Shown: positions 38,080 to 40,515 of the stretch, one piece after another
How positions within the stretch are numbered: the first letter of the stretch is position 1
Layout of the letters: every line of letters starts with the position of its first letter
Source of the DNA: a virus
DNA length: 40,515 nucleotides
IMG/VR virus record: IMGVR_UViG_3300032285_003308
Location: 1 to 40,515 of that record
Reading direction: 5' to 3' (one strand)
Notes under the pieces: generated by a model
What the model was told of the DNA's origin: nothing
Databases searched by the model: none
Seen by the model: the letters and a program-made list of their open reading frames with translations, nothing else
Made by a program: the position numbers and the translations under genes

Positions 38080-39024
38080 TCATTTCTCAAAATTATGTCT
38101 TACAATGTTTTTAACTTTTTCTAAATAAAATTGCTCAAATCCAAGTTCTTTCCACCAGGAGTATGGGGTTCTTTTGGCATTTAAAACTTTAAAATATAAA
38201 CTATCATTAAAAAAGAAATTATAATACATTTCTTGAGATGCTTCAAGGCTATCAGATGCAACTTCAGATGATAAACTCTTATTTAGTACATGCTTTTCAC
38301 CGTAAACTATTTGATTATAGTCTACATTGTCATGTGATATATTATTAAAGTGTTTAGTGTAATAAATATCATACCCCATTAAATATGCTATAAAACTATC
38401 ATATGTTTCTTCCATAAGCATTTCTGAAAGACCATTATATCTTTGCTCTTTAATAAAGTTTTTATCACAAAATATAAAGCCTCCAGCCATCATCTCTGCT
38501 TTATAAAATTTATTTAAAATTTTATGCTCTTCATGTCCTTCTACTTCTGTATACCAGTCAAGTCCCAATCTTTTCATTTGAGGATTTGGAGATGCCGTTC
38601 CAATTTGCCACTTATAAATAGTTTCTTTATTATAATGTCCAAGATCGGTAGATAGATATTTAGATAGGATCACTTTTTCATGAGTTAAATCTTTTAATTC
38701 TTGCAAATCATTAATAAGATTTGTATCCCAACCCTTTAAAAAAAATGAGTGTGAATCGATTTGCAAAAAATAATCATGATCTCTCATTAACATTCTGAGA
38801 ACCGATCTTGTTTTTTGTAGTCCTGGCCTATTTGATACTGATGATTCTAAACATATAATTTTGTCTGGATGCACAAAAGAAATATCTGGCTTTTCAACTT
38901 TTTCATAAAATGTAGCAATGCCAAAATAAATATCGTCTGGATTATCAGCGTTATCTAAACAACTTTTAATAGTTCTGGCAAGAAAAGGATCTTCGTACGA
39001 TGCTATTGACACATAAATGGACAT
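38080..39024 (-). CDS. PF11397-like GlcNAc transferase (Skp1-GnT family)
   Basis: 314 residues from the ATG at 39024 (a TTG at 39033 is in frame; MSIYVSIASY matches the family start better). IYVSIASYEDPFLARTIKSC, NRPGLQKTRSVL, DYFLQIDSHSFFLKGWD with the metal-binding Asp-x-His, GGFIFCDKNF, then LMEETYDSFIAYLMGYDIYY and a final His (ISHDN) follow this GT family in order. In Dictyostelium the family adds GlcNAc to hydroxyproline of Skp1, and the partner next door here is a P4H-like enzyme. Acceptor unknown. TATAAT about 8 nt upstream of the ATG. Confidence 0.8.
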   Translation of the reverse strand: MSIYVSIASYEDPFLARTIKSCLDNADNPDDIYFGIATFYEKVEKPDISFVHPDKIICLESSVSNRPGLQKTRSVLRMLMRDHDYFLQIDSHSFFLKGWDTNLINDLQELKDLTHEKVILSKYLSTDLGHYNKETIYKWQIGTASPNPQMKRLGLDWYTEVEGHEEHKILNKFYKAEMMAGGFIFCDKNFIKEQRYNGLSEMLMEETYDSFIAYLMGYDIYYTKHFNNISHDNVDYNQIVYGEKHVLNKSLSSEVASDSLEASQEMYYNFFFNDSLYFKVLNAKRTPYSWWKELGFEQFYLEKVKNIVRHNFEK

Positions 39025-39034
39025 TTGATACAAT
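39006..39034 (+). promoter_or_regulatory. Promoter of the tRNA array
   Basis: TTGACA-17 bp-TACAAT, extended -10 (TGATACAAT), with a start point about 2 nt before tRNA-Glu. Overlaps, divergently, the TATAAT of the glycosyltransferase gene. Confidence 0.75.
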
Positions 39035-39042
39035 TATAGCAT

Positions 39043-39114
39043 GGCCCTATCGTCTATCGGTTAGGACCCCAGATTTTCAATCTGGCAAGACGGGTTCGAC
39101 TCCCGTTGGGGCTA
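39043..39114 (+). tRNA. tRNA-Glu (UUC)
   Basis: Anticodon stem CCAGA/TCTGG with loop TTTTCAA; T arm ACGGG-TTCGACT-CCCGT; acceptor GGCCCTA/TGGGGCT with a G-U first pair; discriminator A. Confidence 0.9.
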
Positions 39115-39204
39115 CGATACTAAGGTTGCGTTGCAGGTGTAGAGACTGACTCCCGACGGGGACAACTGGAGGACAACGGGCGATAGTAAATCCTCATGTA
39201 TCAT

Positions 39205-39240
39205 GATTAATAAGTTAGTCTGCTCGTAGACTTATTAATC
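39205..39240 (+). repeat. 11-bp inverted repeat in the tRNA array
   Basis: GATTAATAAGT and ACTTATTAATC with 14 nt between, directly 5' of the UAA-anticodon tRNA; possible RNase processing signal or RNA helix. Confidence 0.6.
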
Positions 39241-39244
39241 GCTA

Positions 39245-39317
39245 GTCCTTCTAGCCCAGCGGTAGAGGCAGACGACTTAAAATCGTCACAGCATTGGTTC
39301 GAATCCAATGAGGGACA
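39245..39317 (+). tRNA. tRNA with UAA anticodon but short variable loop
   Basis: Acceptor GTCCTTC/GAGGGAC, anticodon stem GACGA/TCGTC with loop CTTAAAA (anticodon TAA at 39278-39280), variable region ACAGC, T arm ATTGG-TTCGAAT-CCAAT, discriminator A. UAA would read Leu UUA, yet a normal tRNA-Leu has a long variable arm. Charging identity is therefore uncertain. Confidence 0.8.
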
Positions 39318-39470
39318 CTCGAAGTACAGATCTGAACAATTTGTGCTAAGATAGTGATTACTAATAAATTGTTCTACCTGCATCATACGAAGTGGTTCAG
39401 CACGATGGAGATTGCTCTGCAGAAGTAGATAGGTAATTACAGTCAGCGGGAATTCCCACGGCTGACACTT

Positions 39471-39541
39471 AGGGTCTAAGTGTTACGGAAGCACTACCGT
39501 CTCCAAAGCGGTAAGCCTAGGTTCGACTCCTAGAGACTCTG
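39471..39541 (+). tRNA. tRNA-Trp (CCA)
   Basis: Acceptor AGGGTCT/AGACTCT, D arm GTGT/GCAC, anticodon stem ACCGT/GCGGT with loop CTCCAAA, T arm CTAGG-TTCGACT-CCTAG, discriminator G. Confidence 0.85.
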
Positions 39542-39719
39542 CGGTGTAGTGACTAACACTCGGTTATATCAATCGTGAATAAGATATGTAGGCACTGGCC
39601 CGAAGGCTAAGACTGTACTAACTTTACAGATGTGGAGTAGGATCCACGTAGTTGCTACTACTCGTAGGATATCTTGTGCAGAGTCGGTAAGGGGGATCTA
39701 GTCAATCCCTGCTTACATT

Positions 39720-39802
39720 GGAAATATGGCAGAGTGGTCGAATGCAACGGTTTGCTAAATCGTAGATCGAAAGATCCATAGGTTCGAATCCTATTGTTTC
39801 CG
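39720..39802 (+). tRNA. tRNA-Ser (GCU)
   Basis: Acceptor GGAAATA/TGTTTCC, anticodon stem ACGGT/ATCGT with loop TTGCTAA, long variable arm (GATCGAAAGATC), T arm ATAGG-TTCGAAT-CCTAT, discriminator G. Confidence 0.92.
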
Positions 39803-39806
39803 CTTT

Positions 39807-39877
39807 TCCCAGATCGTCTAACGGTAGGACATCGCCCTTTGGAGGCGAGTATCTTGGTTCGAATCCAGGTCTGGGAG
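39807..39877 (+). tRNA. tRNA-Gln (UUG)
   Basis: Acceptor TCCCAGA/TCTGGGA, anticodon stem TCGCC/GGCGA with loop CTTTGGA, discriminator G. 4 nt after tRNA-Ser. Confidence 0.9.
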
Positions 39878-39881
39878 CAAG

Positions 39882-39910
39882 TTGACTTTTAGTTAACTTA
39901 ACTGTATACT
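39882..39910 (+). promoter_or_regulatory. Promoter of the 39917 operon
   Basis: TTGACT-17 bp-TATACT, then 6 nt to the ATG (leaderless). Confidence 0.75.
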
Positions 39911-39916
39911 GAGTAT

Positions 39917-40078
39917 ATGAGTAAAAAGATTAAATATATGACATACGATTTTTTTGGTGAAGAATGGTCTGGTAATTGTGGTGCTTGTGGACTAGAATTA
40001 TTTGCACCAACAAAATCAGAATATTTGATGCAGTATTCTATTCATACACACTCTGATAGTTGCTTAGGAGGCTACTAA
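39917..40078 (+). CDS. Small zinc-finger protein
   Basis: 53 residues: NCGACGLELF and HTHSDSCLGGY, a CxxC...H-x-H...C site. Leaderless ATG. TAATG overlap with the next gene. Confidence 0.65.
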   Translation: MSKKIKYMTYDFFGEEWSGNCGACGLELFAPTKSEYLMQYSIHTHSDSCLGGY

Positions 40079-40164
40079 TGATTCACTCTTTATTTTTAAT
40101 TCCCGCTTTTGTTATGGGGTATGTTTGCTGCTATATTGCAATGACCTATAAGGTTGATCAATAA
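40078..40164 (+). CDS. 28-residue membrane peptide
   Basis: SLFLIPAFVMGYVCCYIAM is one membrane helix with two cysteines. TAATG overlaps at both ends support translation. Confidence 0.5.
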   Translation: MIHSLFLIPAFVMGYVCCYIAMTYKVDQ

Positions 40165-40331
40165 TGGCTTGCTCATGCGGTTATTCAACCGATATGCCAA
40201 ACTGCAATGGAACACATAAAGTTGTCAAAAAGGTTCGTTCTGATATTGCCGATAAAGTCGTGGAATGGATTGCAACACGAGATCTTTGGACAGATCAAGA
40301 ACTGATTGATTTTATTAAAAATGGCAAATAA
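40164..40331 (+). CDS. CDGSH-like iron-sulphur mini-protein
   Basis: 55 residues. CSCGYSTDMPNCNGTH fits the 2Fe-2S CDGSH motif C-x-C-x(n)-P-x-C-[DN]-G-x-H, with Asn in place of Asp, followed by a helical tail (ADKVVEWIATRDLW). Role may be redox or cluster transfer. Overlaps the next gene by 11 nt. Confidence 0.65.
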   Translation: MACSCGYSTDMPNCNGTHKVVKKVRSDIADKVVEWIATRDLWTDQELIDFIKNGK

Positions 40332-40485: not shown

Positions 40486-40491
40486 GGTCAG

Positions 40492-40515
40492 ACACCAGTA
40501 GCCAAGTTGGTTAAG
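40492..40515 (+). tRNA. Partial tRNA, 5' end
   Basis: ACACCAG-TA-GCC-AAGTTGGTTAAG reads as acceptor, positions 8-9 and D arm (AGTTGGTTAA loop). Cut by the window edge, so the anticodon is not visible. Confidence 0.5.

What the first reader, a model, noticed from the sequence alone, without database searches (positions are those of the whole stretch)
39115..39719. About 600 nt of dense RNA structure threaded through the tRNA array
Spacers between Glu, UAA, Trp and Ser tRNAs are far longer than needed, carry no ORF and contain many helices, including AAGATAT/ATATCTT enclosing four adjacent hairpins. This looks like one large RNA or several, comparable to GOLLD-type phage RNAs that lie near tRNAs.
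Basis: partly seen in the sequence, partly recalled or inferred. Interest (0 to 1): 0.75.

Follow-up and report, generated by a model that had tools for sequence, protein, structure and literature searches.

The report
Small structured RNAs inside phage tRNA operon
The long gaps between tRNA genes in this uncultured virus of bacteria hold three separate, previously undescribed folded RNAs, each belonging to a family that other related viruses also place between (different) tRNA genes, probably so that the tRNA-cutting enzymes release them as ready-made RNAs.

Summary
The spacers after tRNA-Glu (129 nt), tRNA-Leu (152) and tRNA-Trp (177) are copies of three unrelated RNA families, here called S1, S2 and S3. 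IMG/VR scans found 22 distinct S1 spacers, 24 S2 copies (22 distinct), 13 S3 copies, and a fourth family, S4 (30 copies, 28 distinct), absent from the window. S2, S3 and S4 show strong compensatory base-pair change with loop-loop or pseudoknot contacts; S1 is very conserved, with fewer such changes. The families combine in different orders and sit behind different tRNAs. Of 66 S2-S4 copies checked, 65 start within 25 nt of a tRNA 3' end and 52 start exactly there. They behave like extra tRNA-sized slots in one operon, with a consensus promoter 8 nt before tRNA-Glu. No Rfam family matches, GOLLD and ROOL included, and no isolated-phage record matches. Closest precedent: the stable RNAs rnaC and rnaD of the T4 tRNA operon, unrelated in sequence. 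Release by RNase Z and RNase P is inferred; expression and function are untested. Probably stable trans-acting RNAs used during infection.

The parts
39006..39034 (+). sigma-70-like promoter TTGACA-17-TACAAT (extended TG), 8 nt before tRNA-Glu
   Evidence: 11 of 12 consensus positions; many carrier loci have a 10-12/12 promoter-like site within 81 nt upstream of their first tRNA, usually 8-13 nt away. No experimental evidence.
39043..39115 (+). tRNA-Glu(UUC)
   Evidence: ARAGORN and Rfam
39116..39244 (+). S1 RNA (129 nt), ends in a long hairpin; loop GCUCG (invariant) can pair with CGRGC upstream
   Evidence: 22 distinct homologous spacers, 89% mean column identity, 7 of 36 predicted pairs with compensatory change
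39245..39318 (+). tRNA-Leu(UAA)
39319..39470 (+). S2 RNA (152 nt here, 150-173 elsewhere)
   Evidence: 24 homologues by covariance model R1 (22 distinct rows), 65-196 bits, nothing else at E up to 1; 96.8% of cells paired, 21 of 36 pairs with change on both sides, 0/500 shuffles
39332..39337 (+). S2 hairpin-1 loop CUGAAC, kissing partner
   Evidence: six base pairs with 39395-39400 in all 22 distinct rows; two rows (L331 and the L344/L348 type) change both sides, CUGAAU/AUUCAG
39395..39400 (+). S2 hairpin-2 loop GUUCAG, kissing partner, on a 3-bp stem GUG/CAC
   Evidence: stem varies as GUG/CAC, GGG/CCC, GGC/GCU, GGC/GCC, AGC/GCU, AGU/ACU, GGU/GCU, GGU/ACU, GCC/GGC, all paired
39471..39542 (+). 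tRNA-Trp(CCA)
39543..39719 (+). S3 RNA (177 nt; 174-185 elsewhere): hairpins P1, P2, P3, P4 (conserved loop CUAACYU), P5, then P7
   Evidence: 13 homologues by model R3, 94-180 bits, next hit 14 bits; 90.6% of cells paired vs 79.4% shuffled, 18 of 37 pairs with change on both sides, 0/500
39550..39555 (+). S3 loop UGACUA of the first hairpin
   Evidence: complementary to 39699-39704; 97.4% of cells paired but no compensatory change, so suggested only
39699..39704 (+). S3 loop UAGUCA of the last hairpin
   Evidence: see 39550-39555
39720..39803 (+). tRNA-Ser(GCU)
39807..39878 (+). tRNA-Gln(UUG), last of the array

Best explanation
The stretch is an RNA operon of a large tailed phage of the uncultured group related to Streptomyces phages such as NootNoot and Jay2Jay. 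One promoter would transcribe tRNA-Glu, S1, tRNA-Leu, S2, tRNA-Trp, S3, tRNA-Ser and tRNA-Gln together. S1, S2 and S3 are three separate small structured RNAs that take slots in the array. Because each starts directly at the base after a tRNA without encoded CCA and ends a few bases before the next tRNA, the host's tRNA 3' endonuclease (RNase Z) and RNase P would cut them out with defined ends, and the terminal helix would stop trimming enzymes. Released, they most likely act in trans as stable, tertiary-folded RNAs during infection (binding a host protein or complex, or assembling with themselves through their kissing loops), as counterparts of the stable RNAs C and D of the T4 tRNA operon. 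Shown: separate families, structure, placement, promoter-like site. Inferred: co-transcription, processing, stability. Guess: molecular target (about 0.3 for a protein-binding or decoy role).
For: Homologous spacers found in different positions: S1 as Glu-S1-Leu, Gly-S1-Glu, Leu-S1-Trp, Ile-S1-Trp; S2 before Trp, Leu, Thr, Gly, Met; S3 between Trp-Leu, Asn-Glu, Leu-Ser, Glu-Gly, Leu-Val, Asn-Asp, Trp-Ser. The S3 scan used only a 17-mer, yet all 11 loci it returned lie between two tRNAs. Of 66 model hits of S2-S4 checked, 65 have a tRNA ending within 25 nt upstream (52 at 0 nt) and 63 a tRNA within 25 nt downstream. Covariation: S2, S3, S4, S1 (7 of 36 pairs). No spacer of the four families starts with CCA, so the RNA begins where RNase Z would cut. 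Promoter-like site 8 nt before the first tRNA. T4 rnaC (139 nt) and rnaD (119 nt) are annotated as small stable RNAs, rnaD 1 nt from tRNA-Arg and rnaC 6 nt from rnaD.
Against: No transcript data of any kind. Carriage is patchy: among 50 close relatives searched, S1 was found in 1 (BLAST), S2 in 2 (model), S3 in 2 (model, strong hits), S4 in none, so the RNAs are dispensable for the group. Not every copy fits: two S4 copies (L350, L353) have no tRNA directly downstream, and S1 in L345/L352 is followed by a further ~60 nt before the next tRNA. The S3 kissing pair has no compensatory change. S3 helix registers were chosen by hand.
Confidence: 0.78

Rival explanations
1. One large GOLLD- or ROOL-like RNA (about 600 nt) with tRNAs embedded in it.
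For: GOLLD and ROOL are phage RNAs near tRNA islands and GOLLD linkers can hold tRNAs (PMC12286853); whole-array fold z is -2.9; S2, S1 and S4 often occur in the same array.
Against: No GOLLD or ROOL match. Modules occur alone, in other orders, with other tRNAs. Covarying pairs were found inside single spacers.
Confidence: 0.04
2. The spacers act in cis: structured linkers or regulators (attenuator, riboswitch-like, processing aid) for the flanking tRNAs rather than independent products.
For: Always in the tRNA transcript; one unrelated spacer in L335 matches manA RNA, a candidate cis-regulator.
Against: The same RNA sits behind many different tRNAs; most relatives carry tRNA arrays with 0-23 nt spacers; no terminator-like site in 38900-40000; the RNAs are mid-operon rather than in a leader.
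Confidence: 0.13
3. Decayed tRNA genes or pseudo-tRNAs.
For: Short T-arm-like string in S1 (GACUGACUCCCGACGGGGA), by eye.
Against: ARAGORN and Rfam tRNA models do not recognise them; conserved non-cloverleaf structures with covariation.
Confidence: 0.02
4. Selfish or mobile insertions that use tRNA junctions as neutral sites.
For: Patchy distribution and varied neighbours.
Against: No ORF in the window copies; no confident copies of S2-S4 away from tRNAs in the 100 loci searched; structure-preserving evolution over many phages.
Confidence: 0.03

Closest known systems
Phage T4 rnaC / rnaD (species 1 and 2 stable RNAs)
   Same: Small RNAs of 119-139 nt encoded in a phage tRNA operon, directly behind a tRNA.
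   Different: Two in tandem at the end of the array, unrelated phage; no match by models R1-R3 and no S1 match in the phage collection. Here the RNAs alternate with tRNAs and form recombinable families.
GOLLD RNA (RF02032)
   Same: Structured phage RNA near or containing tRNAs, unknown function (PMC12286853).
   Different: Many GOLLD members exceed 800 nt, with one conserved 3' region; no match here; S1-S3 are 129-177 nt, separate and interchangeable.
ROOL RNA (RF03087)
   Same: Phage RNA near tRNA islands, with pseudoknots; assembles without protein (PMC12286853).
   Different: 574-position model with no match here.
manA RNA (RF01745)
   Same: Phage-carried structured RNA; one copy found here inside a tRNA array (L335).
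   Different: Normally in 5' UTRs (PMC2864571); not one of S1-S4.

Membership tests
GOLLD RNA | match to the RF02032 covariance model | tested here: not met
   No hit at E up to 10 in 39000-39950; 0 of 49 carrier records (the control genomes did not ring either, so sensitivity in that search is unproven)
GOLLD RNA | single large RNA, often over 800 nt, with a conserved 3' region | tested here: not met
   Spacers are independent 129-177 nt modules in variable order
GOLLD RNA | homo-oligomeric nanocage | not testable with these tools
   needs cryo-EM
ROOL RNA | match to the RF03087 covariance model | tested here: not met
   (no positive control rang)
T4 rnaC/rnaD | sequence or structure homology | tested here: not met
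   Models R1-R3 on the T4 tRNA region: at most 10 bits, none over rnaC or rnaD above noise; S1 BLAST in 50,697 phage records: none
T4 rnaC/rnaD | small RNA gene abutting a tRNA in a phage tRNA operon | tested here: met
T4 rnaC/rnaD | accumulates as a stable RNA in infection | not testable with these tools
   no expression data for these uncultured phages
tRNA / tmRNA | cloverleaf or tmRNA recognised by ARAGORN/Rfam | tested here: not met
cis-regulatory RNA (riboswitch or attenuator) | located upstream of a regulated gene with terminator or ribosome-site control | tested here: not met
   mid-operon between tRNAs, no terminator-like site, no protein gene directly behind the S RNAs in the window

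The most novel reading that the evidence does not exclude
Large phages of (probably freshwater) actinobacteria carry an exchangeable set of small, kissing-loop-folded RNAs (S1-S4 and at least half a dozen rarer ones) stored as slots in tRNA operons and matured by host tRNA enzymes; together they form an RNA-based host-takeover or counter-defence kit whose items are swapped between phages by tRNA-array recombination, some possibly self-assembling through their kissing loops.
Probability: 0.3. Interest if true: 0.9.

Novelty: new variant of a known kind. Interest (0 to 1): 0.72.

Why it matters
Stable RNAs in a phage tRNA operon are annotated in T4. Here several independent, strongly covarying families occupy the same kind of slot in many phages, which makes their role testable by comparison: the RNAs have predictable ends, conserved tertiary contacts and natural presence/absence variation. 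They also suggest a general way for a phage to make defined RNAs without separate promoters or terminators, by tRNA punctuation. No match was found in Rfam 15 or in 50,697 isolated phage records.

Tried and rejected
Rfam scan of the region, strict and permissive: only tRNAs plus tRNA-driven or chance hits. GOLLD/ROOL: rejected. Minimum free energy as evidence: inconclusive for S1 and S3. Long-range S3 helix GUAGUGACU/AGUUGCUAC (also drawn by RNAalifold): nearly invariant, broken in L278, while the local P1 hairpin is kept there as UGGAA/UUCCA; not favoured. S3 17-mer in bacterial genomes: 4 hits, none with tRNAs or a full model match, so chance. Relatives through the neighbouring glycosyltransferase gene: none found. 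The S2 gapped pattern was loose; most of its 120+ hits are chance and were filtered by tRNA context and by model R1, which showed true copies at 65 bits or more and nothing weaker at E up to 1. Model R1 lacks some S2 helices and R3 some S3 pairs because of alignment indels, so pairs were also counted on strands taken by sequence anchors (S2) or by hand (S3).

Full report
What is there. The window is a 40.5 kb virus record in IMG/VR style. Near its right end lie tRNA-Glu, -Leu(UAA), -Trp, -Ser and -Gln. The first three gaps are 129, 152 and 177 nt, the fourth 3 nt. Their GC is 0.41-0.45, against 0.36 for the window and about 0.28 in the flanking genes. No ORF worth the name lies in them. Taken alone the sequence is suggestive only: MFE z-scores are -0.8, -2.2 and -0.8, -2.9 for the whole array.

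Homologues. A 388-aa protein upstream (PHROG 1221) led to 80 loci of related contigs at 83-97% identity; in isolated phages its best listed relatives are Streptomyces phages of about 130 kb such as NootNoot and Jay2Jay at about 50%, so the host is probably an actinobacterium (inference). In most relatives the tRNAs are packed 0-23 nt apart, but a few carry the window's spacers: S1 between Gly and Glu, S2 between Gly and Trp, S3 between Trp and Leu(UAG). Pattern scans of IMG/VR then gave the families: S3 by an invariant 17-mer (11 loci, all between two tRNAs), S2 by its two loops, S1 and a fourth family, S4, that appeared as a neighbour spacer. Clustering gave 22, 22, 13 and 26 distinct spacers for S1, S2, S3 and S4, plus single ones (two of the 26 'S4' spacers are long: L350 holds S4 plus further sequence, L355's 281-nt spacer has no S4 model hit).

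Arrangement. Typical arrays are Gly=[S2]=Leu=[S1]=Trp=[S4]=Ser, Asp=[S2]=Trp=[S3]=Leu, Asn=[S3]=Glu=[S1]=Gly, and in the window Glu=[S1]=Leu=[S2]=Trp=[S3]=Ser. The modules are therefore independent of each other and of any one tRNA. Of 66 model hits for S2-S4 checked against tRNA positions, 65 begin within 25 nt of an upstream tRNA, 52 of them at 0 nt, and 63 end within 25 nt of the next tRNA. None of the spacers begins with CCA. A near-consensus promoter ends 8 nt before tRNA-Glu, and many other carrier arrays have a 10-12/12 promoter-like site at 8-13 nt before their first tRNA.

Structure. S2: on a model-based alignment of 22 distinct rows, 36 pairs in six helices including the loop-loop contact are formed in 96.8% of cells (85.2% shuffled), 21 pairs change on both sides, 0 of 500 shuffles reach this, and slid versions fall to 27-39%. 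The loop CUGAAC and the loop GUUCAG are complementary in all; two rows carry CUGAAU/AUUCAG. The alignment was fitted to a model that already held helices 1, 5 and 6, but not helices 3 and 4 or the kissing pair. S3: 37 pairs, 90.6% formed, 18 with change on both sides, 0/500, slid 29-46%; the model was built with most of these helices. S4: 19 pairs including a pseudoknot between a hairpin loop and the 3' end (GUCGGG/CCCGAC, GUCAGA/UCUGAC), 96.5% formed, 72 cells changed on both sides, 0/500, though fewer pair types than shuffles. S1: almost invariant, 7 of 36 predicted pairs with compensatory change.

Distribution. No copy in 50,697 isolated phage records by sensitive BLAST with one representative of each family, none in bacterial genomes with the S3 17-mer beyond chance. 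Most carriers whose contig exceeds 50 kb encode the PHROG 1221 relative, at 51-94% identity, so the RNAs are spread through one broad phage group, patchily: in 50 near relatives S1 in 1 (BLAST), S2 in 2, S3 in 2 (strong hits), S4 in 0.

How it most likely works. Transcription from the promoter gives one precursor. tRNA maturation then cuts out the S RNAs: the base after each discriminator is the RNase Z site (established for CCA-less tRNAs, from general knowledge), the base before the next tRNA the RNase P site. The remaining RNAs are compact, with a helix near the 3' end, and should be stable. Their role is unknown; the T4 precedent (rnaC, rnaD) and the large phage RNAs GOLLD and ROOL (PMC12286853) show that phages make non-coding RNAs from such loci. 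I favour a trans-acting role, with binding of a host factor more likely than regulation of the flanking tRNAs, because the tRNA neighbours are interchangeable.

Limits. No expression data; covariation significance was judged with shuffles and slides, not with a phylogenetic test; several S3 helix registers were set by hand; the GOLLD/ROOL whole-record searches lacked a positive control; the paper library held is partial, so an earlier description of these spacers elsewhere cannot be excluded (searches found none).

Noticed in passing
L335:3435-3612: A manA RNA (RF01745, 53.6 bits, E about 5e-13, just under the gathering score 55.2) forms the 216-nt spacer between tRNA-Trp and tRNA-Asn of a phage tRNA array, not a 5' UTR as usually described.
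   Followed up: partly
L204, L206 (Ser-92/91-Gln), L056 (Trp-114-Glu), L205 (Leu-119-Ser, Tyr-75-Gln), L335 (Asn-141-Asp, Met-75-Trp), L344 (Met-122-Leu), L355 (Leu-118-Gly): Further GC-rich, apparently structured spacers between tRNAs that belong to none of S1-S4; probably more families of the same kind.
   Followed up: no
L345 and L352, spacer Leu(UAG)-Trp (191/190 nt): S1 is followed by an extra ~60 nt before tRNA-Trp, perhaps a second small RNA in tandem, as rnaD/rnaC in T4.
   Followed up: no
window 39882-39910: Second promoter-like site TTGACT-17-TATACT directly behind tRNA-Gln, ahead of small ORFs including a CDGSH-like protein (MACSCGYSTDMPNCNGTHKV..., about 40164-40331).
   Followed up: no
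window 40486-40515: The contig ends in what looks like the 5' part of another tRNA (GGTCAGACACCAGTAGCCAAGTTGGTTAAG), so the region may hold more tRNAs and RNAs beyond the window.
   Followed up: no
G031:17526-17625 (-), G032:3695-3794 (+), G038:27572-27671 (-): Weak S3-model hits (19-20 bits, E about 1e-4) of 100 nt in three related contigs; perhaps chance, perhaps a distant relative.
   Followed up: no
L140 spacer Glu-64-Arg: Looks like a truncated tRNA-Glu/Gln remnant inside a tRNA array.
   Followed up: no
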